A stretch of 63,905 nt of DNA, taken from the IMG/VR virus record IMGVR_UViG_3300023180_000052, positions 1 through 63,905 of that record, one strand, 5' to 3'. Of the stretch, positions 14,590 through 60,556 are shown piece by piece. Within the stretch, counting starts at the first letter, position 1. Each line of letters begins with the position of its first letter. Position numbers and translations under genes: made by a program. Origin of the DNA: a virus. Below the pieces are notes generated by a model. It searched no databases and had not been told where the DNA came from. It saw only the letters and a program-made list of their open reading frames with translations.

Positions 14590-14646
14590 ATGATTAAGCT
14601 ACAGCCTCTCCCATACGAATATGAAGACTCCTCAATAGATTCTTAA
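14590..14646 (+). pseudogene. 18-codon remnant ORF ending like the 13011 gene
   Basis: An 18-residue frame that ends EDSSIDS, the same C-terminus as the 13011-13577 protein, because the duplicated segment carried the 3' end of that gene along. It is most simply a scar of the duplication, with no sign of independent function. Confidence 0.6.
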
Positions 14647-14768
14647 TCTCTTTATCGTAGGTAGTGTTTTAACTAACTTCACACCATCTACGGTAAGGAG
14701 AGAAGAAATGAAACGATTAGCTTCAGAAGTTCTAAGAGACTTGGAAATAAGAGTTGCCCAACTTGAAA
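14623..14768 (+). repeat. Direct repeat copy 2: gene tail, leader and tag
   Basis: Matches 13554-13700. The leader hairpin is CGTAGGTAGTGT (14656-14667) with ACACCATCTACG (14681-14692). The C-to-T change relative to copy 1 keeps pairing as G-U, so the stem appears conserved. SD TAAGGAG is at 14694-14700. Confidence 0.85.
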
Positions 14769-33119: not shown

Positions 33120-34520
33120 ATGGGATTTCTAAAGTACGCAAAAGCTGAGGTAGTACGACCTCAGCTACATGGGCTAGAATGGGATAAGATTCGAGTTGCT
33201 TCGGGGGCGAAAAAGCTCGACATTTCTCTCAAGAAAAAAGCCGAGGAAATACTTGGCGAGCCTTTTACACCTGATCGTTTCCTCTTAACTCACTCGACAA
33301 TCGTCTGCTCTGTAGACGCTGTTTCTGTTCCTAATACTAAGACAGGTTCGGTTGAGGAAGAGGGTCAGCAGATCAACAGGAAATACGCAGACTACCGAGT
33401 CACCTCAGAGACAGATAAGTACATCAATAACAACCTCGACTGTTGGTCAAGAGGGGTTATCAAGAAGTCTTATAAGACTTTTGTAGGGGCTCATAATTTT
33501 GTGGAACACGTTCAAGTCGAAGAACTTTCTAAAGGGCGTATTATTGACGCTGTTCTTAGAGATGTTGGTGAGTCTATTTATGTGGATATTCTTGTAGCCA
33601 CAGATAGAAAACACGAGGACTTAGTTCGCCAAATCTTATCAGGCGAAATGAACGCTATGTCTATGGGGTGTTCTGTAGACTTTACTATTTGTACGAAATG
33701 TGGACACGTTGCGGCAGATGAGCCACAGATGTGTAAACACGTTAAGTATGAAAAGGGAAATTGGTTCTACGATGAGAGTGGAAATAAGCACCGAGTTGCA
33801 GAGCTTTGTGGTCACGAGACTACGGGTGAAACAGCAGGTGTCACTTTCATTGAAGCGTCTTGGGTTGCAGTTCCTGCCTTTAAGGGAGCTGTCGCTAGAA
33901 ATACGCTTGAAATACCTTCGACTGATGCTAACCCACAGGAAGCTACTCTTAATGAAGTTCCTGCTCAATGGTTAAGCAAGTCAGCTTCTTCTAAGCTCGG
34001 ATTTGATTTCGGAGATGAAGAAGAAGAAGAAAAAGAAGAAGAACCAAAGGTAGACCCTGACGCATCAATCTTAGATCAACTTGAGGGCGTTGTTACTGAG
34101 GCTTTAATCGAGAGACTTCGTAAGAAGCTCGATAATGAGATTAAGCAAAGCCTTGTCGAAAAAGCAGTTAACCTTCCTGCAACTTCTGACGCTACTCAAA
34201 CAGACGATACGATCATTAAAGAGGGTACAAATAAGCGTAAAGAGACTCTTTACCTTATGGCTCTTGATCGTGCTGTGAAAATCGCTTCTTCTCAGAGACA
34301 AGCGATTGAAAACATCAGACTTGTCAATGACAGGTTTGACGTTTATCTTCCTTCTTATTTATACAAGATAGCAGGACAAATAAAAACTGCTGACAAGTAT
34401 AGTAAGGTCGGTAGTTTTATTTCTGACGCTGAACGTGTTCATGGTCAGAAATTGACTCAAAAAGATTCCCTTCGCTTGGTGCGACTTTCCAAGCTTCTTT
34501 CATTCATACACGGGCGATAA
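33120..34520 (+). CDS. Putative prohead (head maturation) protease
   Basis: A 466-residue protein. Residues about 60-265 resemble phage capsid proteases: GAHNFVEHVQVEELSKGRI with a candidate catalytic His, then AMSMGCSVDF with a candidate Ser, and FIEASWVAVPAFKGAVARN. Between them is a Cys/His-rich insertion (C-T-K-C-G-H, C-K-H, C-G-H) likely to bind zinc. The C-terminal 190 residues are acidic and helical, like a core or scaffold extension. It would process the scaffold and tagged proteins inside the prohead. Position between portal and scaffold supports the call; catalytic residues are inferred. Confidence 0.6.
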   Translation: MGFLKYAKAEVVRPQLHGLEWDKIRVASGAKKLDISLKKKAEEILGEPFTPDRFLLTHSTIVCSVDAVSVPNTKTGSVEEEGQQINRKYADYRVTSETDKYINNNLDCWSRGVIKKSYKTFVGAHNFVEHVQVEELSKGRIIDAVLRDVGESIYVDILVATDRKHEDLVRQILSGEMNAMSMGCSVDFTICTKCGHVAADEPQMCKHVKYEKGNWFYDESGNKHRVAELCGHETTGETAGVTFIEASWVAVPAFKGAVARNTLEIPSTDANPQEATLNEVPAQWLSKSASSKLGFDFGDEEEEEKEEEPKVDPDASILDQLEGVVTEALIERLRKKLDNEIKQSLVEKAVNLPATSDATQTDDTIIKEGTNKRKETLYLMALDRAVKIASSQRQAIENIRLVNDRFDVYLPSYLYKIAGQIKTADKYSKVGSFISDAERVHGQKLTQKDSLRLVRLSKLLSFIHGR

Positions 34521-37128: not shown

Positions 37129-38007
37129 ATGAGTAATACAGTTGATAACGCAGTAAAGCAGAAGATCATTGCTGACTACATCAAGACCCCACAGGGTCGT
37201 AGCAAGCTAGCCGCTTCAATGACACAACCACTTCGTCTTCGTCGTGACTATACGAGTGTTGGTCGTAAGACTTTCCTCGTAGAGCAACTTCCTGATGGTG
37301 CTTTGCCGATCTACGACAAAGACCCTGACGTAACTGCTTTCGTAGTTGGTGAAGAAGGCGAGAACATTCTTGCTATCACCAAGCCACGTCGTGTCATTTT
37401 CCCTCTCTTTGAGATCGCTTCTAACCCTGAGATTCCATTGACTCAGATTAAGGAAAGACGCTTCGATCTTATCGAGAGAGCACAGGATTTGGCTCGTGCT
37501 CAGATTCAGGCGGCAGAGGACGAGCGTGTATTCGCTATCCTCGATGCTGTTGCGACTCAGGGCTTCGACTCAATCGCAGGTCAGACTAACGCTGACATTC
37601 CTGTTATCGCTCCTCTTAACGGTGCTGTTCTCGCTGACGCATACGCTCAGATTGAGCGTCACGATCTTCGTGTAGCTCGTGTCTTTATGAATGCTCGTGA
37701 CTACGCTGACATCCGTAAGTTTGGTCGTGATATTCTTGACATCGAGAGCCAAGCGGCTCTCCTCAAGACAGGTCTTCAGGCTACCCTTTGGGGTGCTCAG
37801 ATTATCACTAGCCGTCTCGTTCCTGTTGGAACTGTTTACGTCTGCTGTGAGCCTGAGATGTTCGGTCGTATTCCTGTTCGTACCGAGCTTACCGTTCTCT
37901 CTGCTGACGATCCAAAGGCTCGTACAATTGGATTCAGCGTATTTGAGAATTTGGGTATTGGAGCCTACAACCCTAAGGGTCTAGCTCGCCTTACCGTTAC
38001 TCGCTAA
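37129..38007 (+). CDS. Major capsid protein, HK97 fold
   Basis: A 292-residue protein. The E-loop region (FLVEQLPDGALPIYDKD), spine helix (LIERAQDLARAQIQAAEDERVFAILDAV), A-domain (HDLRVARVFMNARDYADIRKFG; TGLQATLWGAQIITSRLVPVGTVYV) and the closing FSVFENLGIGAYNPKGLA follow the HK97-type pattern of large myophages. No obvious N-terminal delta domain precedes it. SD AAAGGAG lies before the start and a strong terminator follows the gene, as expected for the most abundant virion protein. Confidence 0.85.
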   Translation: MSNTVDNAVKQKIIADYIKTPQGRSKLAASMTQPLRLRRDYTSVGRKTFLVEQLPDGALPIYDKDPDVTAFVVGEEGENILAITKPRRVIFPLFEIASNPEIPLTQIKERRFDLIERAQDLARAQIQAAEDERVFAILDAVATQGFDSIAGQTNADIPVIAPLNGAVLADAYAQIERHDLRVARVFMNARDYADIRKFGRDILDIESQAALLKTGLQATLWGAQIITSRLVPVGTVYVCCEPEMFGRIPVRTELTVLSADDPKARTIGFSVFENLGIGAYNPKGLARLTVTR

Positions 38008-39492: not shown

Positions 39493-39552
39493 GTTTGTTT
39501 ATCTTCTCTATTAGGTGTTCCTTTAACCTTTAGCTCATACGGAGAAATGATT

Positions 39553-39918
39553 ATGAGAAGAACAGCATCAGAAGTCCTTAGAGACTTAGAAATAAGAGTA
39601 GCCAACCTTGAAAAACAAGCGAGTATCATTGCTAACACCATAGTTCAACAGCTTGGTGGTAGTCGTAGGCTTCAAATTTTCATTGGGTTAAAGCAGATTC
39701 TTACTGCGTCTAATGCCGTTACCTTAGTATTTCCAAAACCTAAACATAGAGGTGCTGTGAATAGGGTTCGTATCACTCTTAATGGTAAAGACCTCTATGA
39801 CATGGAATTCATTCGCACTCATGGTCATAGCGTAAAGGTAGTAAAAGAGTTCAATGATGTTTATGCAGAGGACTTGAAAGATCGGTTTGAAGATGGTACA
39901 GGACTCTACATTCGTTAA
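39553..39918 (+). CDS. Short N-tagged hypothetical protein
   Basis: A 121-residue protein. ATG at 39553 is preferred to 39547 because it lies 8 bases after GGAG and gives the exact tag start (MRRTASEVLRDLEIRVANLEK). The body (about 25-121) is a small alpha/beta domain (RRLQIFIGLKQILTASNAVTL; RVRITLNGKDLYDMEFI). No family known. It is the tagged member farthest from the others, beyond the head module. Confidence 0.65.
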   Translation: MRRTASEVLRDLEIRVANLEKQASIIANTIVQQLGGSRRLQIFIGLKQILTASNAVTLVFPKPKHRGAVNRVRITLNGKDLYDMEFIRTHGHSVKVVKEFNDVYAEDLKDRFEDGTGLYIR

Positions 39919-40990: not shown

Positions 40991-42718
40991 ATGAACGAGA
41001 CATTAGCTCAATTAATTAGGTTAGCGTATGACAACCCTGACCTGCGTAGTTTATTGCTTCCGATTATCATTTCTGAGATCGACCCTCAACTTTTGCTCAA
41101 GACAGGTGCTTCCACGAAGTCACAGAAGCGAAAAAAGAAAAAAATAAAGGAAAGAGAGAGGGAGAAGGAGCAAGAAAGAGAGAGGGAGAGGGAGAGGATT
41201 CAGAATGCTACGATAGAAGAAATGCTATCTGACTTTGAGTTTATTGCTCACATCAAGAGAACTCAAAAAGACAATACTTGGGTAGACCCAAATACTAACC
41301 TAGAGAATAACATTAACTCTATTCTTTCTAAAGCTCGTGGGCAGTCTGATATTTCTGGTGAGAATATTAGTCAAGAGTGGGCAAGTGGTATTATTTCTGA
41401 GCTATATAAACAACATAGAGAAGAAGTATCTGTAGACACCGCTTATGGTGGAGATCAATATAAAGCCGAGTTAGATCAGCTTCACGAAATGCTTGATGGG
41501 TTAGCTAATACAGGAGCACTTGATGAGCTAAGAAAAGATTCGAGAAGAGTTTGTACCTTAATTTCTAGGAAGATGTCTGAGGGTGCTTTCGTAGAGCGAT
41601 CAGGAGCCATTTCTAAAATGGCTGACAACTTCCTATGGGGTCTTGAAAGACAGGCTATTCCGATTGCCGATCTCCTTCGTAAGTTGAATGAGCTAAAAGA
41701 AAAGATGAAAGAGAAAGACCGAGAAAGCCTGTCAACGACAGGTGAGCTTCAACCACTTGATGATGTAGTCTTTGAGGAAGTTGCAAAATTGTTAGGGAAA
41801 GGGACTTATGCCGTTGTAAATTTAGAATATGAGGCTCAGATAGAAAAACTGCAAAATGATTTAGGCGATCTGTTAGGGAAACAAATACTTAAAGGGATTA
41901 AAGAGTATGGTAAGGAAGCTATTTCTGAGGGGACTATGGCTGTTTTAGAAGCTACAGTGGGGGCTGTGGGAGGGGGTGTTGTAACTGCTATTGCAAATGC
42001 TTTCGGTTTTGAACATAAGATGAGAAAAGTGAAAGGAAATGTGGTTGAGGTGGTAGGTCGGGGGGTAGACAAGATGAGAGGGACAAAAGGTTCGGGCGAA
42101 CATTGGGAAGAAAAATTCTTACAAGCTACGATGACACCTGCTTCGATTAATGATGCTTATCAAGGCAGAGTAGATGAGATTTCAGCTAAAGTTAAGGAAG
42201 CTGAAACTAGAGAAGATATACTTTCTTTAATCGGAGAAGTGAGAAATACTACTGACCAATACTATACAGAAGCTAAGGTTGATATAGATAGGTCTATCCA
42301 AAGGTCAGTGGTTTACAAGAGAATAGACTCTGCGAGGAACAGGGGTAATCAGGAGATTCAGAATACGCCTAGAGGTCAAAGAGACACCTCTGTTTCAAGG
42401 CAGTTAGACAGAGCCATAGCAGGAGTCTCTAACTTAGCAAATCTTGTTTCTAAGGCAGAAGCGAAGACTGAAGATTTAAGGAGTAAGTTTGCTTCAGAGC
42501 CAAAACACGCAGGCATTTCTTTACTACTCATACAGAGAGAACTAGAGCAGGCATACGCAGAACAAGAGATTATTTCTGCTTTTGAGTCTGAGACACCAAA
42601 AATGTTTGAAAGGTCAATAGATATACTTAAAGATCGTGACAAACGAGACTTGATCTTTGGTGTTAAGGACAAAGAGATCAGAGATTCTTTCAATAAGTTG
42701 ACTGAGGCTGAAGTTTAA
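40991..42718 (+). CDS. Large helical protein with N-terminal LAY module
   Basis: A 575-residue protein. It opens with LIRLAYDNPDLRSLLLPII (about residues 8-26), the recurring LAY module. A Lys/Arg/Glu repeat helix follows (about 45-70). The body is helical with a Gly/Ala-rich hydrophobic patch (ATVGAVGGGVVTAIANAFG, about 318-336) that might be membrane-active. SD GAGGTG precedes the start. No catalytic motif. A virion or ejected-protein role fits the module but is inference. Confidence 0.6.
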   Translation: MNETLAQLIRLAYDNPDLRSLLLPIIISEIDPQLLLKTGASTKSQKRKKKKIKEREREKEQERERERERIQNATIEEMLSDFEFIAHIKRTQKDNTWVDPNTNLENNINSILSKARGQSDISGENISQEWASGIISELYKQHREEVSVDTAYGGDQYKAELDQLHEMLDGLANTGALDELRKDSRRVCTLISRKMSEGAFVERSGAISKMADNFLWGLERQAIPIADLLRKLNELKEKMKEKDRESLSTTGELQPLDDVVFEEVAKLLGKGTYAVVNLEYEAQIEKLQNDLGDLLGKQILKGIKEYGKEAISEGTMAVLEATVGAVGGGVVTAIANAFGFEHKMRKVKGNVVEVVGRGVDKMRGTKGSGEHWEEKFLQATMTPASINDAYQGRVDEISAKVKEAETREDILSLIGEVRNTTDQYYTEAKVDIDRSIQRSVVYKRIDSARNRGNQEIQNTPRGQRDTSVSRQLDRAIAGVSNLANLVSKAEAKTEDLRSKFASEPKHAGISLLLIQRELEQAYAEQEIISAFESETPKMFERSIDILKDRDKRDLIFGVKDKEIRDSFNKLTEAEV

Positions 42719-42748: not shown

Positions 42749-42806
42749 TATATGTAGGTCGGTATAACTGACCAATCTTCTACTTAAGAAAGAAATGGAG
42801 AACACA

Positions 42807-43778
42807 ATGGAGTTCATTCGAGGAACATTCCAAACTTTTGAGTCACAAACTACTGTTCATCTTGGTCGTTTGGAAAGAAATCTTTCTAAGGGCGATCTCG
42901 TTGAGTTTGATGGCTATACTCTGAAGTTTGCAGGGAAAGAGACTGTTATGCCTGAGTTGAAGGCGGGCATTAAGCGTGGTTGGTTGAAGCATACAGAGGC
43001 TTCAGCTTCTACTGTTGTTGCCGAGCCTGTGGTCGAAGCTCCTGCACCCCCTAAGAAAGAAATGAAGATCGACACCGTGTATGACGAGGAGAGGTCTGTC
43101 GCTGAGATCAACCCCACTAAGACTGAGGAAACAAAGAAGTTCCCTATTGTTGTTGAGTCACAAGACGATGATATGATCGCAGTCTCTAAGGTAGAGAATA
43201 AGAGTGGTGCGACAATCAATAACGCTTCTAGTGCCGAGACAGGTGGTGGTATCGCTGAGTCTCAAGGTGCTGAGTCAGTGGGCAAGATCAAGATCAAGAC
43301 AGCTTCTAAGCAGAAGACCGTTATTTCTGACGGGTCACAAGCAAGCTCTGAAATCTCTCGCCTAGAGAACCTTTCTCGTGACGCTGTGAAATCTGAGTCT
43401 ACTACTGAGGCTTCTGTTGAGAAGATTGCTTCTGAGATCAACGATCAGATTGAGGAAATCGATGAGGAGCTAGAACTTATTGATCTTCTTGAGGAAGAAG
43501 CTCCTGCCGTTGATGACCAAGCACTAGAGGCGGCTCAGATTCTTGCAGCTGTTGATGGTGAAGTACAGCCAACACAAGGTGCTGTCACAGTCGGTAAGGA
43601 TACCTCAAAGGTGAAGTCTTTACCTGTAGGCATTGATTGGGATATGGCTCCCCATTGGACGAAGCGAGCAAGCCTAGCTGTTGAGCTTTATCGTGACCAC
43701 CCTGAAATCTTAGAAGCGATTATGGCTGTAGAGTCTAAGGGCGTTGTTAACTCTATCAAGAAAGCGATTGAGGCTTAA
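42807..43778 (+). CDS. Conserved phage protein with acidic linker
   Basis: A 323-residue protein. ATG at 42807 follows GGAG; an in-frame ATG at 42795 lacks an SD. The first 65 residues (GRLERNLSKGDLVEFDGYTLKF, MPELKAGIKRGWL) are a small beta domain I recall from conserved phage proteins. A long disordered Ala/Glu/Ser linker follows, then a C-terminal helical segment (SLPVGIDWDMAPHWTKRASLAVELYRDHPEILEAIM). The two conserved ends separated by an acidic linker suggest a connector in the virion. Function unknown. Confidence 0.6.
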   Translation: MEFIRGTFQTFESQTTVHLGRLERNLSKGDLVEFDGYTLKFAGKETVMPELKAGIKRGWLKHTEASASTVVAEPVVEAPAPPKKEMKIDTVYDEERSVAEINPTKTEETKKFPIVVESQDDDMIAVSKVENKSGATINNASSAETGGGIAESQGAESVGKIKIKTASKQKTVISDGSQASSEISRLENLSRDAVKSESTTEASVEKIASEINDQIEEIDEELELIDLLEEEAPAVDDQALEAAQILAAVDGEVQPTQGAVTVGKDTSKVKSLPVGIDWDMAPHWTKRASLAVELYRDHPEILEAIMAVESKGVVNSIKKAIEA

Positions 43779-43830
43779 TAATCTCTTGATATATTCCCTT
43801 CCTTGAATAGTTTTTGATAGGGAGAGAACC

Positions 43831-44412
43831 ATGAGAAATAAGAAAGCCTCAAGCCAAGCTTCTTGGTCGATTTTAGCAGGGGGCGTTTCAGACGCTAGAG
43901 TTGAAGCGTATAAGATCAGAATAGCAGTCAATCAGATGGTTGAAGCTCTTAAAGATTCCCCTGCTATTGAAGAAGTTTATCGCCTTTGTGGTGATACATT
44001 TCTCTCTATTCCTGATAGTCTTGCTCTCCTTGAGAGACATTTAGATAAGACTAATTATGCACTTATTACAATGGGTGCTGATTTCTACCGTCAGCGACTG
44101 CCCCATAGTGATCGTGAGACTGTAGATATTGCTTCTAAGTATAATCCTGCACCTCATGCGGCTCGTATGATTAACTCGGAAATGATCTCCAAAGAAGCAG
44201 GTACTTCAGGTGAGTTTTGGGAAGAGATTGCTGATCTCATTTCTGAGAAGATAGAGAATGGAGACAAAGAGATTACTATTTCTCGCAGAGAGCTTTCAGA
44301 CCCTAGTCAATATGGTGCGTTGGTTTCTTTTGAGAGAGAGGGTCTTGTTCAGAATTTTGGCTCGTATCTTGTGGTGACTCAAGATGGTATTCGTGCATTC
44401 CTACACGGGTAA
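43831..44412 (+). CDS. Conserved hypothetical protein with helical repeat
   Basis: A 193-residue protein. SWSILAGGVSDARVEAYKIRIAVNQMV and LLERHLDKTNYALITMGADFYRQRLPHSDR form a core I recall from large phages. The tail (ELSDPSQYGALVSFEREGLVQNFGSYLVVT) is a small winged-helix-like fold. SD GGGAGAG precedes it. Its 3' end may be overlapped by a minus-strand Zn-ribbon frame. Confidence 0.6.
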   Translation: MRNKKASSQASWSILAGGVSDARVEAYKIRIAVNQMVEALKDSPAIEEVYRLCGDTFLSIPDSLALLERHLDKTNYALITMGADFYRQRLPHSDRETVDIASKYNPAPHAARMINSEMISKEAGTSGEFWEEIADLISEKIENGDKEITISRRELSDPSQYGALVSFEREGLVQNFGSYLVVTQDGIRAFLHG

Positions 44413-44512
44413 AACAAGGTAGGTCTTTTCTCATCGGACAAGATACTTTAAGCGTATTGCCACATCGCCAACAGATGAAGTGCTTAGGGTTTTTCTGAGG
44501 GGTTAGCTTCAT
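44303..44512 (-). CDS. Possible small zinc-ribbon protein
   Basis: A 69-residue frame from ATG 44512, with GGAG ten bases before it. FICWRCGNTLKVSC and a further Cys (DLPC) make a plausible zinc ribbon. Against it: the 3' half lies antisense to the end of the 43831 gene (about 110 bases of overlap), which is unusual here. It also begins inside the DUF3310 gene in another frame. Confidence 0.35.
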   Translation of the reverse strand: MKLTPQKNPKHFICWRCGNTLKVSCPMRKDLPCFTRVGMHEYHLESPQDTSQNSEQDPLSQKKPTHHID

Positions 44513-44720
44513 TGCTTTTACGCTCCATTTCTCGTTGGAGATACCATATTGCTTTACTGATGTCCTCTTCAAAGGACTCATTGGGTTTAGACCCTGCTCT
44601 CAGAATATACTTGATGGCAGAGCCGAGTGAAAAGTTCAAATCATAGGCTTCGATTACGTCTATGGCTTTCATTCCATTTCCTTTATAATGGTCGGGTTGG
44701 TTTATCTTTTCATATCCCAT
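44484..44720 (-). CDS. DUF3310 family protein
   Basis: A 78-residue protein. INQPDHYKGNGMKAIDVIEAYDLNFSLGSAIKYILRAG is the DUF3310 signature (N-P-x-H-Y...I.VIE...F..G.AIKY..R.G), followed by EEDISKAIWYLQREM. This small family is widespread in phages and has been described as nucleotide-kinase-like in one case; the true role is unclear. It lies on the minus strand amid plus-strand genes, like other early-type genes in this window (phoH, thymidine kinase). Confidence 0.8.
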   Translation of the reverse strand: MGYEKINQPDHYKGNGMKAIDVIEAYDLNFSLGSAIKYILRAGSKPNESFEEDISKAIWYLQREMERKSNEANPSEKP

Positions 44721-44770: not shown

Positions 44771-47700
44771 ATGGCAAAGCACATAGACAAAGAAGCAGGG
44801 TTGGTAAAGCCACCACCTGCACTCTTCAGATTAGTGACACAGATCGCTCAAGGTGTATTAGCTGACCATGTTACTCGTAGTATATACAGCACCACAGTCG
44901 GTATGGAAGAAATAGAATATCTTGAAGAAGTAAACGAAGAAATACTTAAAGTTCTGAACAACTACGAAAAAGCTGACATGGAGGATTTCTTTGAGCTTGT
45001 TGATAGCTTTCGTATCGAATACCACGATGTTCTCAGAGTCATTCTTAACGACTATGAGGATTATCCAGAAGACGTTCAAATTAAAGAAGATGCAAAGTTC
45101 GGGTTGAAGCTTGTCGAGGAAATTACAAGATTCCACGACATAGAATTCAAACCTTACTCTAATAGAGACTTAGAGAAGCTCAGAGAGAGTAAGAGAGCAG
45201 TACAACTACTTGTTGCCGCTCTTTCTTTTGTCACGAAGCAACTAAGACTCAAGAAAGAAAGAGAACCTTATGAAGATAAGGACAGCTTTGAACGAGCTTT
45301 ATCTCAGCTTCCTAGAGAGTATCTCATAAGCAAGTACACCCACTTAAATTTAGGCGTTAAAGCAGAAGTTACTTACAATGACTTTAACCACCCAATAAAG
45401 CTAACTTTTAAGTTCCAAAACTCTAGGGTTTTGGGCAGTCATAGTATGGTTGGGAATTACCACCATATTCTGATTACTATGCCCGACAAACGGAAATATA
45501 GTCAGCAAGATTTAGATGCTGTTGAAGATACTGTTAGACATGAGTTAGTTCATGCTGTGCAAGAGGAAATAGCCACACGCAACTTATTAGCTGAGAGTGG
45601 TGGGTTGCCTTTCTCTAAGAGAGATCGAAGATTCAGACAGCATGACCAAGCAGGCGAGCGAAGAGTCCGTAATGAATTAAGGCAGTTAGGCTTAGACCCC
45701 AATTTAGCTAACTTTCATGCCCTTGATGATGTGGAATTCTACACAAGACTCTTAGACGAAGTTGAGGGCTTTAAGGACGAACACCCGAACCCCGACAATC
45801 GAACTATTTCTAGGTATATTAATAATAGACCTTTCTTTAGATCGCTCAAACACTTTAAGAAGAAGTATTGGGACAAGGCTGTGGGTCTGTTTTATCAAGC
45901 TGTAAATGAGGGTTCAGAAGCTCGTGTAGCGAGACAACTAATACAAGACCTTGCAGGCGTACAGACATGGGTAAGTAAGACTCGTCAAGATCAAATAGAG
46001 AACGACACTTCGACACCCGAACCTAGCAGGGCTGACTACCAAGACGGGAAGCCTCAGAGAGACAGGGTTTTACCCTTACCTAGTGGACACCCTAAAGGCA
46101 GAGATGAGGTAAGGGCAGGGCCACCTGTTTCTAACACTCCGTCTGATAGTGCAGGTTCATCTCTTAATCATAATACTCCGATGAACCCTAATGCTATTCC
46201 GAACCAACCCGATGGGAAACCACTTCATCAGCGACCTCGTTCTTCAGGGCTTCCTGGAGATGAATACGGACACCCTTACATAGACGCTAAGAATACAACA
46301 GGGTTGTCGAGGAGAACCTTCAAAACTGCTTTTGAAATGGACTTATCAGAGGGTGATGACCTTGATTATTTCCTTGAAGACGATGGCGACTTTTCTAACC
46401 GAGAAGGTGTGGGTCGAGCTAAGATTAATTGGAGAAGACCAAAGGTTCGACAACGAAAGTGGCAAGGTCAGCTCAAGAGAGAATACAAAGTTAATCGGGC
46501 TAGAACTAAGCGTAAAAACCTTAGTAAAAAGATTAATATGCGTAAGAGGTACTACGAAAGAAATAAGCACTTGATTCTGAGGTATCAAAAACGCAGGAGG
46601 GAGCACCCTGAACAGCATAAACGGTTTAAGGGAGGTCCTTCTACTCAAACTCAAAAAAATAACAGAAGCAAGAGAGCTGAAATGATGAAAGACACCTTGG
46701 CTTTGGTTCAGAATGTGGACATCTTCGATAGAATGGCAGAGGAAATGGAATCGTCAGAAATCATGGCGAAGCCTCGCTATCAAAGTGGACCTGGTTCGAG
46801 AAGTACCCACAAGCAACAGAAAACTAGACGTAAGCGTAAGAAGTTGAGGAACTCGAACTATACGAAATTGCGTAGGGCGAGAAAGAGATATTATCGCAAG
46901 AACAAAGCTAAGATTAAAAAGAGAGTGAAGACTTGGAGAAGAAAACATAAGCAAAGGCTCAAGAGGTATAAGCCTATGGGCAAGAAAGCTTCAATGTTCT
47001 TTGAGTACCCATTTCTTTTAGAGTGTTCTATTGAGGGTATGCCTCTTTGTGTCGAGCGTATTTCACCTTGTACCTCTTTTATAATTCTCAGTCATCAGAA
47101 CGATGAGTCTGATCTTTATGAAATGTCGCTTTACGACTTCTATTGGGAAGCCGAGTGGAATGATGAAGAAGATGAATGGGACTTTGATGACTTTGTAGAG
47201 GAAATAGCTGAAATGAAAAGAATTGCTAAGAATGTTCCGAACGACCCTAAACTGTGGGGGCAAATTATAGAGCTTGCTAAAGGGGAACGTAAGACTCCTG
47301 TAGAAAAAGGTGGGGTTAGCGTTTCTCCTGTTAGAGATGGTGAGGGGTTTCAGAAATACCCAAGTGCCTATGCAAATGGGTGGGCTTCAAAAGCTTATGG
47401 GGACTTAGGTGGTACTTGGTCTAAGCAAGCTAGTCAGCGTGATATTTCCTTGCCTACTTTACAGGTTCTCTTAGCTATTCTGAGAGGAGCACATTGGGCT
47501 CATTGGACAAGCCATTGGCAAGTCAAGGGGCAGAGCTACTATGGAGATCATCTATTACTAGAGAGAATCTATGAGTCTTTGATTGAGGAAATAGATACCC
47601 TCGCAGAGAAGATCGTAGGCACTTACGGTGCGATGGCTGTAGCTCCTGTCGAGCAGGCTCAGATTATGGCGAACACTCTTTTACCTGTAGCTGAGGCACA

Positions 47701-47887
47701 GGCAGAGAATGACCCTATCCGTAGAGCTTTAGTCATTGAAGAAGCGTTGCAGGTTGTCTTTAAGAACATCTATAAATCTCTCAAAGAAATGAACACTCTC
47801 ACTTTAGGTATGGACGACTTTTTGATGTCTATGGCTAATGCTCACGAAACAAATCTATATCTGTTACGACAAAGAACAAGGGGTTAA
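44771..47887 (+). CDS. Fusion of metalloprotease, basic and Dps/ferritin-like domains
   Basis: A 1038-residue protein. Residues about 190-400 contain a zincin signature H257-E-L-V-H261 (TVRHELVHAVQEE). A Pro/Asn-rich linker follows. Two extremely Arg/Lys-rich regions (about 550-625 and 666-740) can bind DNA. YPSAYANGWASKAYGDLGG (about 863) is a motif I recall from phage proteins. Residues about 893-1038 are Dps-like with the full ferroxidase set H915, H927, D942, E946, at E. coli Dps spacing. It might condense or protect DNA and oxidise iron, with proteolysis at the start. Domain identities are strong, function is inference. Confidence 0.8.
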   Translation: MAKHIDKEAGLVKPPPALFRLVTQIAQGVLADHVTRSIYSTTVGMEEIEYLEEVNEEILKVLNNYEKADMEDFFELVDSFRIEYHDVLRVILNDYEDYPEDVQIKEDAKFGLKLVEEITRFHDIEFKPYSNRDLEKLRESKRAVQLLVAALSFVTKQLRLKKEREPYEDKDSFERALSQLPREYLISKYTHLNLGVKAEVTYNDFNHPIKLTFKFQNSRVLGSHSMVGNYHHILITMPDKRKYSQQDLDAVEDTVRHELVHAVQEEIATRNLLAESGGLPFSKRDRRFRQHDQAGERRVRNELRQLGLDPNLANFHALDDVEFYTRLLDEVEGFKDEHPNPDNRTISRYINNRPFFRSLKHFKKKYWDKAVGLFYQAVNEGSEARVARQLIQDLAGVQTWVSKTRQDQIENDTSTPEPSRADYQDGKPQRDRVLPLPSGHPKGRDEVRAGPPVSNTPSDSAGSSLNHNTPMNPNAIPNQPDGKPLHQRPRSSGLPGDEYGHPYIDAKNTTGLSRRTFKTAFEMDLSEGDDLDYFLEDDGDFSNREGVGRAKINWRRPKVRQRKWQGQLKREYKVNRARTKRKNLSKKINMRKRYYERNKHLILRYQKRRREHPEQHKRFKGGPSTQTQKNNRSKRAEMMKDTLALVQNVDIFDRMAEEMESSEIMAKPRYQSGPGSRSTHKQQKTRRKRKKLRNSNYTKLRRARKRYYRKNKAKIKKRVKTWRRKHKQRLKRYKPMGKKASMFFEYPFLLECSIEGMPLCVERISPCTSFIILSHQNDESDLYEMSLYDFYWEAEWNDEEDEWDFDDFVEEIAEMKRIAKNVPNDPKLWGQIIELAKGERKTPVEKGGVSVSPVRDGEGFQKYPSAYANGWASKAYGDLGGTWSKQASQRDISLPTLQVLLAILRGAHWAHWTSHWQVKGQSYYGDHLLLERIYESLIEEIDTLAEKIVGTYGAMAVAPVEQAQIMANTLLPVAEAQAENDPIRRALVIEEALQVVFKNIYKSLKEMNTLTLGMDDFLMSMANAHETNLYLLRQRTRG

Positions 47888-47890
47888 GAA

Positions 47891-49507
47891 ATGACTGCTA
47901 TTTCACTTAGAGGCGAACTAATCCGAGTAGCTTATGAACATGAGGGTGTTCGAGCTTTAATTTTACCTATCCTTACAAGTAGGGTTGCAAGTACGGAAGT
48001 TAGTTTAAAAGCGAGGGCTATTAGACTAGCGTATGCTCACCCTGAGTTGAGAGGTTTAGTCTTACCTTGTATTAAAGTTGCCGATACAAGAAAGCGTATG
48101 AACCAACAGAGGAAGAAGAATCAGCAAAGGTCTGAGCGATCTAAAAAGAGAGATGCTGAAATCGCTGAGAATAATGCGGCGAGAGACGCTACCAAAGCAG
48201 GTGAGGGTTTAGTTGAGGCTCTAGGTAAAGGCTACAAAGTACCTTGGAAACATGGTCGTAGAGGTGAGATTACCTTAAAGACTCTTATTTCTTATGCAGG
48301 GGACAAAAACCACCCTAAAAGACAAGAAGCTCAAAAGCTCGTAGAGCAACTTAGGAAAAAACAAAGGAATGACAGAATTAAAGGTGCGATTAAAGACACC
48401 TCTAAGAAAGCCCTAGCAGGAGCGAGCCGACTTTTAGCTGAGGGTGTTAAAGCAGGTCTAGGAGCCGCTTCTGAGCTTTCAGATGGTATCGGAAACATGA
48501 TCTTAAGTGGTTCAAGAACACCAGGCGAAATAATGTCAGAAGCCGTAGGAAAGATTTCTGAGCAACTTGAAAAAGATAAAGCTAAGAATGAAGGTCATTA
48601 TAATCAAGCTATGCAAAGCTTAGGCGTTCAAGACTTCCAATCTGCGAGTTCAATGATGATGGCAGGTAAAAAAGTCGGTATGGGTATGATGAAGACGGCA
48701 GGGGCTAAAATAGGTTCGGCAGGGGTAGGTGCTCTTAAGGGGGCAGGTGAAGCCGCTATGGGTGGTGTGGGTTCGGGTGCTCTTTGGATAGCAGGAGGTG
48801 CTTTCAAAGCTCTTGGAGGAGGACTTAAAGTCTTACAAAAGGGTGCAGAAGTCGCAGATAGAGTCAAACTTGCGAGCGATGTTGACGCTACTGTAGACGA
48901 GTTACTTGACAATATTTCTGAATATCTTGGAGAGATCGGTCCAAATGAGTTGGAAGCTCTTGAGCCATATATTCAAGATGACGGTAACTTTGACGTAGAA
49001 GCCTTTAACAAGGATTTAGAGGAGCAAGGTGCTGAAGCAATCAAAGCTCTTGAAGAATACTTGAGTGAGGTTGTTGAAGACGAGGAAGATTCTGAGGAGA
49101 CAGAGGAGACAGAGGAGACAGAGGAAGCTGAGGAAGATTCTGAGGAAGCTGAGGAGGTAGAGGAAGCTGAGGAAGCTGAGGAAGCTGAGGAGACAGAGGA
49201 AGCTGAGGAGATAGAGGAAGATTCTGAGGAAGCTGAGGAGACAGAGGAAGCTGAGGAGACAGAGGAAGCTGAGGAGACAGAGGAAGCTGAGGAAGATTCT
49301 GAGGAGACAGAGGAAGCTGAGGGTGTTTCCGATGAGGCGAAAGCTAAGGCGAACGAAGCTATCCAAAAGGCTCTGTCTAAGAAAGCTCTCGTCAGAGTTG
49401 CTTACGAGAACCCCAAGTATAGACCTGTTCTTCTTGATCTGATTAAAGACGGAAGAAATAGATACCCTGCTTCTGAGATTAGAAGCGTGTTAATGAGTGC
49501 TTTATAA
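47891..49507 (+). CDS. LAY-module protein with acidic repeat tail
   Basis: A 538-residue protein. It has three LAY modules: about 10-28, about 42-60 and again near the C-terminus (LVRVAYENPKYRPVLLDLI, about 500-518). The middle is basic, then Gly/Ala-rich amphipathic (MMKTAGAKIGSAGVGALKGAG), then a long Glu tract (about 399-477) made of EETEEAEED-type repeats. It starts 3 bases after the Dps fusion. Bacterial homologues unknown to me. A virion protein bearing several copies of an address peptide is the working guess. Confidence 0.6.
   Translation: MTAISLRGELIRVAYEHEGVRALILPILTSRVASTEVSLKARAIRLAYAHPELRGLVLPCIKVADTRKRMNQQRKKNQQRSERSKKRDAEIAENNAARDATKAGEGLVEALGKGYKVPWKHGRRGEITLKTLISYAGDKNHPKRQEAQKLVEQLRKKQRNDRIKGAIKDTSKKALAGASRLLAEGVKAGLGAASELSDGIGNMILSGSRTPGEIMSEAVGKISEQLEKDKAKNEGHYNQAMQSLGVQDFQSASSMMMAGKKVGMGMMKTAGAKIGSAGVGALKGAGEAAMGGVGSGALWIAGGAFKALGGGLKVLQKGAEVADRVKLASDVDATVDELLDNISEYLGEIGPNELEALEPYIQDDGNFDVEAFNKDLEEQGAEAIKALEEYLSEVVEDEEDSEETEETEETEEAEEDSEEAEEVEEAEEAEEAEETEEAEEIEEDSEEAEETEEAEETEEAEETEEAEEDSEETEEAEGVSDEAKAKANEAIQKALSKKALVRVAYENPKYRPVLLDLIKDGRNRYPASEIRSVLMSAL
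49085..49322 (+). repeat. Degenerate tandem repeat coding poly-Glu
   Basis: Repeats of GAGGAGACAGAG and GAGGAAGCTGAG with GAAGATTCTGAG interruptions, encoding EETEEAEEDSEE. Units of 6, 12 and 30 bases can be seen, typical of slippage. Confidence 0.9.
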
Positions 49508-52814: not shown

Positions 52815-52861
52815 CCCTCATTGGTAATGTGGTTGTGTTCAATCTTAGTAAAGGAAATAAT

Positions 52862-55762: not shown

Positions 55763-58700
55763 ATGGCTATTCGAGGAGGCTATGCACCACCTGGGGTCTA
55801 CACCGAGACAGTATTCGAGTCTCCGACCCCTCAGAATAACTTTTCGGGGAGAATTCCTCTCCTCATTGGCTCAGGTACTGAGTCTTTTGCTCAAAACGGC
55901 TTAACTGTTGTCCGAGGGTCATCTGCTACGATAGATCAGCAGATCGTAGAAGAAGATGCAACAGGTCGGTCAGTCTTATTTCAGAACCCCGATGGGTCGT
56001 ACTCACTAGGCGACTTTGATGGTACTTCTAATGTCGTTAGGGTTCGTCAATGGCCTATCGTTAATGGTGACGGAACAGGCACTACTGCTACAACTGCCTC
56101 AGTAGTTACTGCTTCGATTAACGGACAGGCTACTGTTGTTCTAAGTATTAATGCGAAAGAGGGTCTTGTCACCCTAGCTTCATCTCCTGATGAGGGTGAT
56201 GATGTTCGCATTTCTTACTTCTTCAATCGTACTGACAACTTTGTAGATAGTGAAGATGTCTCAACTCAAGTTACTTCTGAGGAATCAGACCTCTATGCAA
56301 CTTTTGCTGATATGGCAATCACTCCTACTACAAGAACACTTGTCGCTACCATTGATGGCGTAGTTCATGTAATCGACTTGCCTATCAAGTCAGTTAATAC
56401 CACACGCACAGAGCACTTAGGCTTTATCGTGTCTAAGATCAATGCTCTTGAGATTGGTACTTTGGGTGCAAGCACCTACGTTGACCACAGAGGAAATACA
56501 AACCTCCTCTTGTCTGCAAGTGGGTCAATCTTAATCGGTGCAGGTACTGCTAACCCTCACATCGGTGTCTTTGAGGGCATGACAGGGACAGCTAGAAATA
56601 CTGTTTTCTACACAGCCCACAACCCGATTGTAGACGGTACTAATGGTGGTATCGTTACGTCAGAAGTATCTGACGTAGTTGTTAAAGTAGATGGTGTTGA
56701 GGTGACTCCTATTTCCCTCGACCCAACTACAGGTGCAGTCACTCTTGCCGTTGCTCCTCCTGTTGGTGCTGAAGTCACTATTTCTTATTACTTCAACTCG
56801 TTCAAAGACAACTTCGACTTTATCCCAAGTCGTGATGTTCTTTCTGTGAGCCGAGTTTCCCTTGTGCCTGAAGGTGGTGGTGACGCCGCTCGCTACTATG
56901 AGGGTGTTAGTTGGGTTCTCAAAGACGATAAGATTTATTGGGGTACTTTCGTAGATGCTTCTGTAGGAAATATCCAAGAGGGTCTTGTTAGCTTTGGACC
57001 GAATCAGATTACGACAGCCCTTAGAGATGAGCGTTTGTTCCTCGCTGAGTGTGCTAATGTGACGGACACTTCTGTAGTCCCACCTCGTACTCTCCCTAAT
57101 GTTTTCAAGCTACCTCATCAGCCTACTGACGGCACAGGTACAGCGACTGCGACAAGTAACCCTGCTCTCGTACAGGTCAGAGTTGGTACTAGCATTTCAG
57201 ATGCTCTTGAAAGATCAACCGTTGCTGTGACTCGTGTAAATCCTGCTGATAGTACGATTACTCTGAGTCAGCCTGTTCCTTTCGGAAGCAAGGTCTTTGC
57301 TACTTTCTACTACAATAACATTCAAGATGAGTTTGATATTGCAGGTGGTGGCTATGAGGTACAGGTTGCTTCTGTTGGTGGTTCAAATGTCGGTACTTAC
57401 ACCCTCTCTCGTTCGGGTCTTCCTCTCTTTGGAGCAACCTATGAGGGTAAGGGTTCAGACTTGTCTCTTACTGCGATCAACTTCCCATCAGGAAGCGAAG
57501 CACAGTCAGGTGTGAGTCTGAGTGCAGGTACTCCTGTTGAGGAAACAGTTACTGTTAAGTTTGCGAGCTTCGAGCCAACCCCTGCGATCTTTACTGCTCC
57601 AAAGGCGGCTCCTTACTCATTCTTAGAGACTACTTCAGACACCATTTCTGTGAACCTAGATAATGCAGGTGCTTTGAATGTAGAGCTTGTTAATCCTACA
57701 GGTCTAGGAAATAAGGGCTTGATGACTTATATGGTCAGCGAGCCACTTCCTTATACAGCTTCTTCTGACAATGCTAATCTCGGCACAGTTGATGGAGACT
57801 TGTTCCTTAAGATTGATGGCGTAGAAATGAGCATTGATCTTAGTGGTGGAAATGCAATCGCCAATGCGACAGCGGCTTTGATTGCGGCTGAGATTAACAC
57901 ACAGGCTAAGGCTATCGGTGCTTCGTACACAGCGATGACTCCGATTGGACCGTACACTGTGATTGCAGGTGAGAACGACCTTCTCACCTTCCACTATGAA
58001 GACAATACCCAAAACCTCGTTCCGATTACACTCACTTTAACCCCAGGTGAGTATTTAACAGCAGACGCTATTGCTACTGAGATCAATGCTCAGATTACTA
58101 TTGATGCTACTTTCGACCCTGCTACTCAGTTTGGTGCTTCTGCTGTAGACGGTAGACTCGTATTCACTCTGAAGTCACTTCTGGCAGGTGACTTTGGTTA
58201 TGTCGAGTTCATCGCCCAAGGCGACCCGACAGACGATTTCGCTCGTGTTGCAGGTATTGATGTAGGTGCTGATGGGGGAAGTCAGACTAAGTTCGGCATC
58301 TTGCCTATCGCATACTCAGTCGCAAACGATCTTTCAGCAGTTGTCGGAAATGACGCTAGTAAAGATCGCCTTATCCTCAGAAATAGAACTCTGATCGGTG
58401 AGTCATACTTCCCAACTACGACTCTCGGTATCGAGGTTATTGGTGGTAGCGTTCTCACTCAGCTTGGTCTTGAGGTAGAGGAAGTCATTTCTCCACGTCA
58501 AGCAGTTGTGGAAGCACCTTCACTCTTACTTCGTGCAGGTTGGAATGCTCAAGACGCTGTGTCAGGCTCTCCAAGTGTTACTTTCTATGACGGTACAGAT
58601 ACCAACTTCCCTGCCAATAATGTTCTTACTCTGAACATTAATGGTGACTCATATTCAGTCACTTTTGTAGGGTCAGCTCAAGGTACTTCTACTGTTCTTT

Positions 58701-60556
58701 ACACGACTGTACTTACAGCGATTAACACTCAGCTTACAGGGATTGCTACAGCAACGATTGAGGGAGCGAACCTCAGAATCACTCCGAACAGCTTCGATGA
58801 TGACAGCTTCATTTCTGTTCTTGATGGTTCAGCAAATGATCTGTTTGCTCTTACACAAGGTGCGTCCGTTACTTCAAGACCTGTTAGTGCAGACGCTCTA
58901 AGTTCTGCTTTCATGCAAGCAGGTGCTTGGGCTTCTGTTAAGTCGTTCTTAACTGACCCAGCTGCGGTAGCAGGCTCTTATAGAGCTGATGCTATTTCCT
59001 ACGTTACTGTTGATGGTGCGAATAGACGCTATGTCAACTTCGAGACTCTCTCAACAGGCACTCAGACTTCAATCGCCTTTACAGGTGGTGACGCTATTAC
59101 AACTGTCTCAACTAATCTTGGTATCAAGGTGAATGACGGGGCTGTTGGTGAGGCTTCTTATCAAGGCTTCTATGTCACCTCTACTCATGCTAGTGGTTCA
59201 GGTACTGCAAACACCTCGACTCTGAATGATGGTACAGGTGCAGACGGTGTTGTCGGTCAGACTTATGTGGATAGCGTAACGGGCTTGACCTTTACTATTC
59301 TCCCTAGAGAGGGTAGTCAGCCTTACCCAACTGGTGCGAACTCTACCCTTACTTTCAAGGTGGGTCGGGTTCTCACAGCGAATGCTAACATTCCTGTCAA
59401 TGCGATTGCAGGCGTTAGTCTGATCGTAGCGAACACAGTAGGTACTGAGGTTGGTGATACAGCACTTGTTGAGACTTTCCGAGCATCTGAAGTAGAGAGA
59501 GAGCCTTCAATCGGAACACCTTATTTCTTAAATGTGACTCGTAAAAAGGCTTCTTTCGCAACGGGCGTATTTAATCGTATTGCTGACGTAGTTGCGGCGT
59601 ATGGACCTATTTCTGTGGACAATCCACTTTCGTTAGGTGCTTATATCGCTTTCCTCAATGGTGCGAGTGTTATTGCTCTCAAGCAAATCTCTCTTGATGA
59701 GGGTCAATCTGAGCCAACTGAAGCTCAGATGGTTGACGCTCTTGTAGAGGTTGAGGGTGAGATCAGTTCGGGTCTTTCACCAAGCGTGATTGTACCTCTC
59801 TTGCCTGCAAGCTCAACGCTTCTTGCAGACATTTCTTTGCATTGCGATGTTCAGTCAAGTCTGAGGTATCGTTCAGAGCGTACTGCGATCTTGGGCTGTC
59901 CTGCTGGGACTTCACCTGAGCAAGCGGCAACTCTTGCAAGAAATGTAGGAAATAGCCGTGTTCGTCTTGTCTACCCTGACATCGTTAGTTTATCAGTAAC
60001 TAACACGAATGGTGTGACTAACAATCTTATTGTTGATGGTCGTTATCTTGCTGTGGCTCTTGCCTGTGCGACAACTTCTTCAACAGTTGATGTGGCTACT
60101 CCTTGGACTAATAGAAACCTTTTAGGCTTCAATGGTCTTTTGAGAACCCTAGACGCAGTAGACGCAAATAAGACTGCTTCAGCAGGTGTGACTATCCTAC
60201 AGCAACAGGGTGCTTTGATTAACATCAGACAGGGCTTGACTACTGACGTTAGCTCAATCCTTGCGAAGACTCCTACTGTGATTCAGATTGCAGACGAGGT
60301 ACACCTCAGAGCGAGAAACCTACTTGCAGGTTATATCGGTCAGAAATACCTCCCAAGCGTTGTAGGTCAAGTAGAGGGTCGTGTGAACATGATGTTCAAG
60401 GACTTAGTGAAGGAGCAGATCATTGATTCTTACACAGGTCTTTCGGTCATTCCTGACCCCGAAGACCCAACGAGCTTGCTTGTTGATGTGTACTACAAGC
60501 CGATCTTCCCACTTCTCTACATTCAGTTCACATTTAATGTGAGAAGCTCGATCTAA
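55763..60556 (+). CDS. Giant tail sheath protein
   Basis: A 1597-residue protein. The N-terminus GGYAPPGVYTETVFE is the classical sheath start. The C-terminal third (SLGAYIAFLNGASVIALKQIS, GVTILQQQGALINIRQGLTTDV, and the ending VDVYYKPIFPLLYIQFTFNVRSSI) is the conserved contractile core. The middle has large insertions: three beta repeats at about 112-158, 301-352 and 467-525 share a V.L..GP..G..V.I.YYFN pattern, and later segments repeat ITLTPG...T...IA..IN. At over twice the length of T4 gp18 (659 residues), the extra domains probably decorate the tail surface. It shares CTAA with the convergent thymidine kinase gene. Confidence 0.88.
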   Translation: MAIRGGYAPPGVYTETVFESPTPQNNFSGRIPLLIGSGTESFAQNGLTVVRGSSATIDQQIVEEDATGRSVLFQNPDGSYSLGDFDGTSNVVRVRQWPIVNGDGTGTTATTASVVTASINGQATVVLSINAKEGLVTLASSPDEGDDVRISYFFNRTDNFVDSEDVSTQVTSEESDLYATFADMAITPTTRTLVATIDGVVHVIDLPIKSVNTTRTEHLGFIVSKINALEIGTLGASTYVDHRGNTNLLLSASGSILIGAGTANPHIGVFEGMTGTARNTVFYTAHNPIVDGTNGGIVTSEVSDVVVKVDGVEVTPISLDPTTGAVTLAVAPPVGAEVTISYYFNSFKDNFDFIPSRDVLSVSRVSLVPEGGGDAARYYEGVSWVLKDDKIYWGTFVDASVGNIQEGLVSFGPNQITTALRDERLFLAECANVTDTSVVPPRTLPNVFKLPHQPTDGTGTATATSNPALVQVRVGTSISDALERSTVAVTRVNPADSTITLSQPVPFGSKVFATFYYNNIQDEFDIAGGGYEVQVASVGGSNVGTYTLSRSGLPLFGATYEGKGSDLSLTAINFPSGSEAQSGVSLSAGTPVEETVTVKFASFEPTPAIFTAPKAAPYSFLETTSDTISVNLDNAGALNVELVNPTGLGNKGLMTYMVSEPLPYTASSDNANLGTVDGDLFLKIDGVEMSIDLSGGNAIANATAALIAAEINTQAKAIGASYTAMTPIGPYTVIAGENDLLTFHYEDNTQNLVPITLTLTPGEYLTADAIATEINAQITIDATFDPATQFGASAVDGRLVFTLKSLLAGDFGYVEFIAQGDPTDDFARVAGIDVGADGGSQTKFGILPIAYSVANDLSAVVGNDASKDRLILRNRTLIGESYFPTTTLGIEVIGGSVLTQLGLEVEEVISPRQAVVEAPSLLLRAGWNAQDAVSGSPSVTFYDGTDTNFPANNVLTLNINGDSYSVTFVGSAQGTSTVLYTTVLTAINTQLTGIATATIEGANLRITPNSFDDDSFISVLDGSANDLFALTQGASVTSRPVSADALSSAFMQAGAWASVKSFLTDPAAVAGSYRADAISYVTVDGANRRYVNFETLSTGTQTSIAFTGGDAITTVSTNLGIKVNDGAVGEASYQGFYVTSTHASGSGTANTSTLNDGTGADGVVGQTYVDSVTGLTFTILPREGSQPYPTGANSTLTFKVGRVLTANANIPVNAIAGVSLIVANTVGTEVGDTALVETFRASEVEREPSIGTPYFLNVTRKKASFATGVFNRIADVVAAYGPISVDNPLSLGAYIAFLNGASVIALKQISLDEGQSEPTEAQMVDALVEVEGEISSGLSPSVIVPLLPASSTLLADISLHCDVQSSLRYRSERTAILGCPAGTSPEQAATLARNVGNSRVRLVYPDIVSLSVTNTNGVTNNLIVDGRYLAVALACATTSSTVDVATPWTNRNLLGFNGLLRTLDAVDANKTASAGVTILQQQGALINIRQGLTTDVSSILAKTPTVIQIADEVHLRARNLLAGYIGQKYLPSVVGQVEGRVNMMFKDLVKEQIIDSYTGLSVIPDPEDPTSLLVDVYYKPIFPLLYIQFTFNVRSSI

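What the first reader, a model, noticed from the sequence alone, without database searches (positions are those of the whole stretch)
44771..47887. One polypeptide joins a zincin, two DNA-binding-like basic regions and a complete Dps ferroxidase
H257-E-L-V-H261 marks a metalloprotease and H915, H927, D942, E946 mark an active-type Dps site with exact E. coli spacing. Between them lie two regions packed with Arg and Lys. Dps proteins protect DNA from iron and peroxide. A phage making a DNA-binding, iron-oxidising protein of this size, beside LAY-module proteins, could use it to condense or protect DNA in the head or to shield it on entry.
Basis: partly seen in the sequence, partly recalled or inferred. 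Interest (0 to 1): 0.8.

Follow-up and report, generated by a model that had tools for sequence, protein, structure and literature searches.

The report
Huge-phage zincin–basic-arm–Dps fusion protein
A very large bacterial virus makes one long protein that ends in an intact Dps domain (the bacterial shell protein that binds DNA and disarms iron and peroxide), preceded by two strongly positively charged arms and a protease domain whose relatives in other jumbo phages have been found inside virus particles; this makes a virus-packaged DNA-guarding protein plausible and testable.

Summary
The 1038-aa ORF is intact and has the stated residues. The C-terminal 149 aa is a real Dps domain: AlphaFold2 pLDDT 88, Z 18 to M. 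smegmatis Dps, and a profile that finds only Dps in the PDB. The ferroxidase ligands H915/H927/D942/E946 are invariant in 34/34 distinct phage homologues. The N-terminal 386 aa is a zincin (HExxH, Q264 and E322 invariant in 19/19). The basic blocks carry +31 and +35 net charge. The fusion is no artefact: two other huge phages have it (54-55% identity over the N-terminal 386 aa, 76-82% in Dps).

The window belongs to a huge-phage lineage (capsid 88% identical to LR745208, 38% to Bacillus phage G). There the same modules (zincin, a conserved Pro/Gly block, basic arms, 'SAYAN' module, Dps) are swapped, fused and split inside the head/tail gene block. In multi-module ORFs Dps is always last (18/18), so the basic arms precede it, like an overgrown E. 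coli Dps tail.

The zincin is homologous (hhalign E 7.5e-10) to CBB_322 of jumbo phage CBB, which was detected in virions with 30 peptides. Best explanation: a polyvalent-like virion cargo protein that coats and protects phage DNA. Virion location, dodecamer, ferroxidase and DNA binding are untested. New variant of known kinds.

The parts
44771..47887 (+). whole ORF, 1038 aa, multi-module protein
   Evidence: same protein on three independent IMG/VR contigs
44771..45325 (+). N module (aa 1-185), all-helical bundle that accompanies the zincin
   Evidence: AF2 model helices 16-163; found with Zn in most homologues
45326..45928 (+). zincin-type metallopeptidase domain (aa 186-386)
   Evidence: invariant H257,E258,H261,Q264,E322 in 19 homologues; predicted strands 195-237, HExxH helix 245-270, helix 323-337
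45539..45553 (+). HELVH active-site motif (aa 257-261)
45734..45736 (+). E322, probable third zinc ligand (LDD-V-E-FY)
   Evidence: invariant in 19/19; role inferred
45929..46405 (+). B module (aa 387-545): conserved Pro/Gly-rich block DGKPQRDRVLPLPSGHPKGRDE...KPLHQRPRSSGLPGDEYGHPYID
   Evidence: up to 75-81% identity in relatives; core of the gene at this locus
46406..46690 (+). basic arm K1 (aa 546-640), net +31
46775..46996 (+). basic arm K2 (aa 669-742), net +35, no acidic residue
46997..47215 (+). X module (aa 743-815), acidic, net -21
   Evidence: homologous module in L132, similar stretch by eye in L024
47216..47437 (+). S module (aa 816-889), VPxDPxLW...YPSAYANGWASKxYxxLGGxW
   Evidence: also in Synechococcus phage S-BM3 and in other ORFs of relatives
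47438..47884 (+). Dps domain (aa 890-1038)
47513..47608 (+). ferroxidase-centre residues H915, H927, E931, D942, E946
   Evidence: 34/34 conserved except 931 (22 E, 7 D, 5 other)
42795..44412 (+). two conserved upstream neighbours (42795-43778, 43831-44412) that precede the B gene in many relatives
37129..38007 (+). major capsid protein, marks the structural block
   Evidence: phrog_2522 6e-51
33120..34520 (+). head maturation protease
   Evidence: phrog_18299 6.9e-16
55763..60556 (+). tail sheath, downstream end of the structural block
   Evidence: tblastn to Tunturi_5 annotated tail sheath, E 1e-42

Best explanation
This is a late, structural-locus, polyvalent-like protein of a huge phage, most likely carried in the virion. 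Shown by sequence: (1) an N-terminal helical + zincin domain; (2) a conserved disordered-looking Pro/Gly block; (3) two basic arms; (4) an intact Dps domain, always at the C-terminal end of multi-module ORFs. Inferred mechanism: the Dps domains self-assemble through the usual two-fold ferroxidase interface (ligands come from two subunits, so dimerisation is required) and probably into a shell. The basic arms, on the N-terminal side, radiate outward and coat phage DNA without sequence specificity, as the lysine-rich N-terminal tail does in E. coli Dps but much larger. The Dps core oxidises Fe(II) with H2O2 and keeps Fenton chemistry off the DNA in the head and/or just after entry. The zincin travels along and trims the chain or cleaves a partner or host protein. 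In relatives the zincin is often a separate ORF of the same locus, so a permanent covalent link is not needed.
For: Dps fold: AF2 pLDDT 87.9; top-50 Foldseek PDB hits all Dps; VIA Z 18.1 to 5h46; profile search gives only Dps or Dps-based constructs below E 1e-3. Active-site conservation 34/34. Basic arms +31/+35, and a stretch of at least +17 in 40 aa upstream of Dps in every Dps ORF that carries one. Dps last in 18/18 multi-module ORFs. Where Dps is its own ORF (L098, L100), a P-B-K ORF lies directly upstream with a 4-nt overlap. Location: between capsid and tail sheath here, and between portal and terminase in other relatives (L120, L121), i.e. in the head block in different arrangements. 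Exactly one Dps locus in each of 9 long records. Zincin family: hhalign Prob 96.5, E 7.5e-10 over 252 columns with BF_0319/BF_0320 and CBB_321/CBB_322; CBB_322 was found in purified CBB virions with 30 unique peptides, 43.6% coverage (PMC5259590 Table 4). Relatives of the locus also carry PAP2, GNAT and Dps+InPase modules, the kind of unrelated enzyme mix described for virion-delivered polyvalent proteins (PMC5512222).
Against: No proteomics exists for this lineage, so virion location rests on gene position and on a distant homologue of the zincin part only. Some relatives have the B/K gene without Dps in it (L050, L052), and the 485-kb LR745208 has a lone 161-aa Dps about 84 kb from its capsid gene. 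So Dps is separable from the arms and may act alone. Dodecamer formation with a roughly 890-aa N-terminal extension is sterically untested. No Foldseek or VIA match to a solved zincin. Basic regions could bind RNA or the acidic neighbour protein rather than DNA.
Confidence: 0.5

Rival explanations
1. Intracellular, not virion: the protein is made during infection, coats replicating phage DNA and detoxifies iron/peroxide in the dying host, as proposed for Dps of gut 'Gratiaviridae'. The structural-block position only reflects late expression.
For: Stand-alone phage Dps genes are known and were interpreted this way (PMC8008677); LR745208 has a lone Dps away from its capsid gene; the catalytic site is conserved.
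Against: Most close relatives fuse Dps to B/K modules or place it directly beside them inside the structural block. The zincin family member CBB_322 is a virion protein.
Confidence: 0.28
2. Dps as scaffold: the domain serves mainly as an oligomerisation hub (shell or dimer) that multimerises the arms and cargo modules during head assembly; iron oxidation is secondary.
For: Dps is always the terminal module; the arms and B block are the constant parts of the gene; 12-fold display would suit head assembly.
Against: Strict conservation of all four iron ligands in 34/34 sequences is not needed for a pure scaffold.
Confidence: 0.12
3. The basic arms bind protein or RNA rather than DNA, for example the strongly acidic repeat protein encoded next door (47891-49507), making a charge-paired structural complex.
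For: The downstream ORF carries an acidic EEAEET-type array encoded by 49057-49361; the protein's own X module is net -21.
Against: Most B-K-Dps fusions examined lack an X-module hit; the E. coli Dps precedent is DNA binding by a lysine-rich N-terminus (PMC10536872).
Confidence: 0.08
4. Assembly or annotation artefact: separate genes joined by error.
For: Modules occur in separate ORFs in many relatives.
Against: 100% identical protein on three independent contigs; independent fusions of 991 and 882 aa in L132/L154 and L134/L152, plus a truncated fourth copy on contig L014 that matches L134.
Confidence: 0.02

Closest known systems
Bacterial Dps (E. coli Dps, H. pylori NapA, M. smegmatis Dps, S. 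coelicolor DpsC)
   Same: Four-helix fold with a helical B-C connection, H-x11-H-x14-D-x3-E ligand spacing, basic extension on the N-terminal side as in E. coli
   Different: One C-terminal domain of a 1038-aa protein; arms of about 200 aa with net charge above +60; extra modules; phage-encoded
Phage Dps genes (Lactobacillus phages such as Lpa804, cf. PMC6669764; gut Gratiaviridae, PMC8008677; phrog_3636; Pfam DUF5856)
   Same: Same domain family (phrog_3636 E 2.6e-12; DUF5856 in 14/14)
   Different: The Lactobacillus phage hits match only the Dps part of the query (about 30% identity) and no fusion to basic arms or a zincin is described in the sources read
Polyvalent proteins (Iyer et al. 2017, PMC5512222)
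   Same: Large multi-module phage polypeptides joining unrelated activities, zincin as hub domain, modules shuffled between ORFs, predicted packaging in the capsid
   Different: No Pfam polyvalent domain in this protein; the paper mentions neither Dps nor ferritin
RaK2-like jumbo phage virion proteins CBB_321/CBB_322, BF_0319/BF_0320
   Same: Homologous N-helical + HELQHxxQ...EY zincin domain; CBB_322 is in virions
   Different: No Dps hit in the whole-protein phage search for these records; different C-terminal regions
T4 Alt and internal head proteins
   Same: Works-like analogy (from memory): non-capsid proteins packaged with and injected with DNA
   Different: No homology tested or claimed

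Membership tests
Dps | Ferritin-like four-helix bundle with Dps-type helical B-C connection | tested here: met
   AF2 model, helices 6-31, 39-65, short helices 67-90, 95-119, 125-149; Foldseek and VIA to Dps (ferritins also reach Z about 16)
Dps | Intersubunit ferroxidase ligands at helix A/B positions (H, H, D/E, D, E) | tested here: met
   H915, H927, E931, D942, E946; four invariant in 34/34
Dps | Profile matches Dps rather than ferritin/bacterioferritin | tested here: met
   All 40 PDB sequences with E<=1e-3 are Dps or Dps-based constructs; Pfam Ferritin only weak
Dps | Dodecameric shell | not testable with these tools
Dps | Ferroxidase activity and DNA protection | not testable with these tools
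   Needs biochemistry
Zincin metallopeptidase | HExxH plus a downstream acidic zinc ligand | tested here: met
   H257/E258/H261 and E322 invariant in 19 sequences
Zincin metallopeptidase | Core fold: beta sheet, HExxH helix, second helix with the ligand | tested here: inconclusive
   Order of elements fits, but no solved zincin was matched; the helical N-domain filled the lists
Polyvalent proteins | Several domains of unrelated activity in one mobile-element polypeptide, zincin as hub | tested here: met
   Zincin, basic arms, Dps; PAP2, GNAT and InPase+Dps in relatives
Polyvalent proteins | Contains a curated polyvalent-associated domain | tested here: not met
   Pfam finds only DUF5856 in this protein; hence 'works like', not filed as a member
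RaK2-like virion zincin (CBB_322 family) | Homology across the N-helical + zincin domain | tested here: met
   hhalign Prob 96.5, E 7.5e-10, 252 columns
RaK2-like virion zincin (CBB_322 family) | Present in the virion | not testable with these tools
   Shown for CBB_322 only

The most novel reading that the evidence does not exclude
A phage virion carries its own ferritin-like DNA-protection protein: Dps shells with long protamine-like arms condense the packaged genome and quench iron/peroxide during head storage and genome entry, with a co-packaged zincin that releases them from the multi-module chain.
Probability: 0.3. Interest if true: 0.82.

Novelty: new variant of a known kind. Interest (0 to 1): 0.56.

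Why it matters
If right, it would be a first case of a Dps-type protein built into a phage structural programme, linking bacterial nucleoid protection, iron chemistry and huge-phage DNA packaging. It also names a concrete module set (zincin, Pro/Gly block, basic arms, SAYAN module, Dps, PAP2, GNAT, InPase) that a widespread but uncultured huge-phage lineage shuffles in its head/tail block, which gives proteomics and biochemistry clear targets.

Tried and rejected
Fusion artefact: rejected. Chance HExxH: rejected by conservation. Ferritin/bacterioferritin instead of Dps: fold comparison alone does not separate them (ferritins Z about 16), but profile and ligand pattern do. Fold search with the N+zincin model against the PDB led nowhere because the helical N-domain filled the hit lists. 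Profile search of the zincin in the PDB gave coiled coils and a non-significant BepA match. Pfam and NCBIfam gave no name for the zincin or the B block. tblastn of the zincin and of the B block against phage records: no match; relatives came only through IMG/VR and later profile comparison. The cultured relative Tunturi_5 lacks all modules within 20 kb of its capsid gene. No relative among GTDB genomes or plasmids, so no host hint. A [ILMV][AS]xE prohead-protease-like motif was only mildly enriched over shuffles (80 vs 54) and was dropped as evidence of processing. Sigma-70 promoter and terminator scans were at chance level. No tRNA and no Rfam family.

Full report
WHAT IS THERE. ORF 44771-47887 (+) encodes 1038 aa without interruption. 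The same protein is 100% identical on three further IMG/VR contigs. The window is an IMG/VR virus record. Its capsid protein is 88% identical to the 485-kb uncultured phage LR745208, 47% to Tunturiibacter phage Tunturi_5 and 38% to Bacillus phage G. It belongs to a lineage of contigs up to 376 kb. The gene lies in the structural block: terminase 24019, portal 27363, maturation protease 33120, capsid 37129..., tail sheath 55763.

MODULES. From iterated profiles over 190 fetched loci and relatives' ORFs: N-helical 1-185 + zincin 186-386; B 387-545, a Pro/Gly-rich block that is nonetheless 75-81% identical between some phages; basic arm K1 546-640; basic arm K2 669-742; acidic X 743-815; S 816-889 (YPSAYANGWASK, also in Synechococcus phage S-BM3); Dps 890-1038. 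The full zincin-B-K-...-Dps fusion recurs as 991 aa (L132/L154) and 882 aa (L134/L152, a 275-kb contig). These match at 54-55% over the first 386 aa and 76-82% in Dps. Other relatives have B-K-Dps (356-590 aa), B-K-S-Dps (652-653 aa), K-Dps, or Dps as its own ORF directly after a P-B-K ORF. In L126 the string is split in two adjacent ORFs (Zn-P-B-K | basic stretch-...-Dps). Dps is the last module in all 18 multi-module ORFs. On a tree of 34 Dps sequences the basic-arm fusion needs 2 changes and the zincin fusion 1 (many forks weakly supported).

DPS DOMAIN. AlphaFold2 with 14 homologues: pLDDT 87.9, pTM 0.84. Foldseek PDB: all 50 listed hits are Dps. VIA Z 18.1 to M. smegmatis Dps1, with ferritins at about 16. 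Sequence profile versus PDB: 40 hits below 1e-3, all Dps or constructs built on Dps. H915, H927, D942, E946 are invariant in 34 distinct sequences; position 931 is E/D in 29. Collection of the set used the pattern HWT[ST]HW, so H915 is partly ascertained; the other three are not in the patterns. E990, H1025 and E1026 are also invariant (H1025/E1026 lie inside the second search pattern) and unexplained.

ZINCIN DOMAIN. H257, E258, H261, Q264, E322 are invariant in 19 homologues (HExxH was part of a search pattern). The model (pLDDT 79.8) has a helical bundle, then strands 195-237, the HExxH helix 245-270 and a helix 323-337 starting right after E322. That fits the description of polyvalent zincins in PMC5512222, but no solved zincin was matched by fold. 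The top BFVD match was 'Structural protein' A0A1S6UAZ1 of Serratia phage BF (528 aa, E 1e-4), which fits BF_0319 by length and annotation. The zincin profile also hits BF_0320 (E 3.7e-5). Both carry HELQHxxQ...EY. hhalign of the two families: Prob 96.5, E 7.5e-10, 252 columns from end to end. The CBB homologue CBB_322 was detected in purified CBB virions with 30 unique peptides and 43.57% coverage, the top of the reported range of 1 to 30 (PMC5259590). This is experimental support that this zincin family is virion-borne in jumbo phages; extension to the window is inference.

SURROUNDINGS. The gene follows two conserved neighbours (42795, 43831) in many relatives. In others the Dps cluster sits between portal and terminase (L120, L121). 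Other ORFs of the locus in relatives carry the same zincin, S and Pro/Gly modules plus PAP2 (Pfam 1e-8 to 1e-10), GNAT, and in L186 Dps with InPase (1.5e-40). InPase is a domain listed for virion-packaged polyvalent proteins.

MECHANISM. Shown: modules, conservation, locus, Dps fold, zincin homology to a virion protein. Inferred: dimer/shell assembly, outward DNA-binding arms, iron/peroxide chemistry near packaged or entering DNA, zincin trimming. Basis for the analogy: E. coli Dps binds DNA by its lysine-rich N-terminus, prefers H2O2 as oxidant and forms 12-mers (PMC10536872). Because fused and split forms coexist, the parts probably work in one place rather than needing one chain.

KNOWN VERSUS NEW. 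Dps genes in phages are known (PMC8008677; Lactobacillus phages), and zincin polyvalent proteins are known (PMC5512222). In the papers searched I found no zincin-basic-Dps fusion and no virion-associated Dps; the held library is open-access only. Hence: new variant of known kinds, with a 0.3 chance of the stronger reading (a virion-packaged Dps nucleoid protein).

Noticed in passing
24019-27138: Terminase large subunit carries what looks like an intein (SGKCVTGDTLVTTDRG...; hits split around it), absent from a shorter 617-aa relative with 77% identity in the aligned part (L121).
   Followed up: partly
8812-10220: Class III nucleotidyl cyclase-like ORF (Pfam Guanylate_cyc 9e-7; weak PycC 0.0033) with a hydrophobic C-terminal stretch, followed by a membrane/coiled-coil ORF; the pair is conserved (56-71%) in L050/L052/L122, there inside the structural block.
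   Followed up: partly
52829-53908: Glutamine-synthetase-like gene (Pfam 2.8e-17) in the structural block, conserved at 68-74% in L024, L049 and L122; function in a phage unclear.
   Followed up: no
45-110, 13640-13700, 14708-14768, 39547-39613: Four proteins share an N-terminal tag M(K/R)RLASEVLRDLEIRVARLE, reminiscent of a capsid-targeting peptide; zero expected in shuffles.
   Followed up: partly
40991-42718, 47891-49507: LIRLAYxNPxLRxxLLP motif repeated four times in two neighbours; function unknown.
   Followed up: partly
10230, 19370, 29091, 50430 ORFs; module junctions in relatives: Short (S/A)xRVAxxY(L/M) motif recurs at module junctions and C-termini of structural-locus proteins (6 seen, 0.7 expected).
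   Followed up: partly
49057-49361: Acidic EEAEET-type repeat array in the ORF just downstream, a possible charge partner of the basic arms.
   Followed up: no
13554-13700 and 14623-14768: 95% identical duplicated upstream region plus tagged N-terminus of two adjacent genes.
   Followed up: no
44484-44720 (-): Small opposite-strand ORF (78 aa, GYEKINQPDHYKGNGMKAIDVIEAYDLNFSLGSAIKYILRAG), looks like a DUF3310-type protein, just upstream of the gene.
   Followed up: no
L117, L121, L126: Relatives' ORFs at this locus contain an FYHYTY...DGYLRPN...WDKPVKL region that looks like an ADP-ribosyltransferase-type fold; not tested.
   Followed up: no
L186:2-1696: Dps fused to an InPase domain (PF18823, 1.5e-40) in a related contig.
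   Followed up: partly
aa 990, 1025, 1026 of the window protein (within 47438-47884): E990, H1025, E1026 are invariant in all 34 phage Dps sequences besides the ferroxidase ligands; a second metal site is possible.
   Followed up: no
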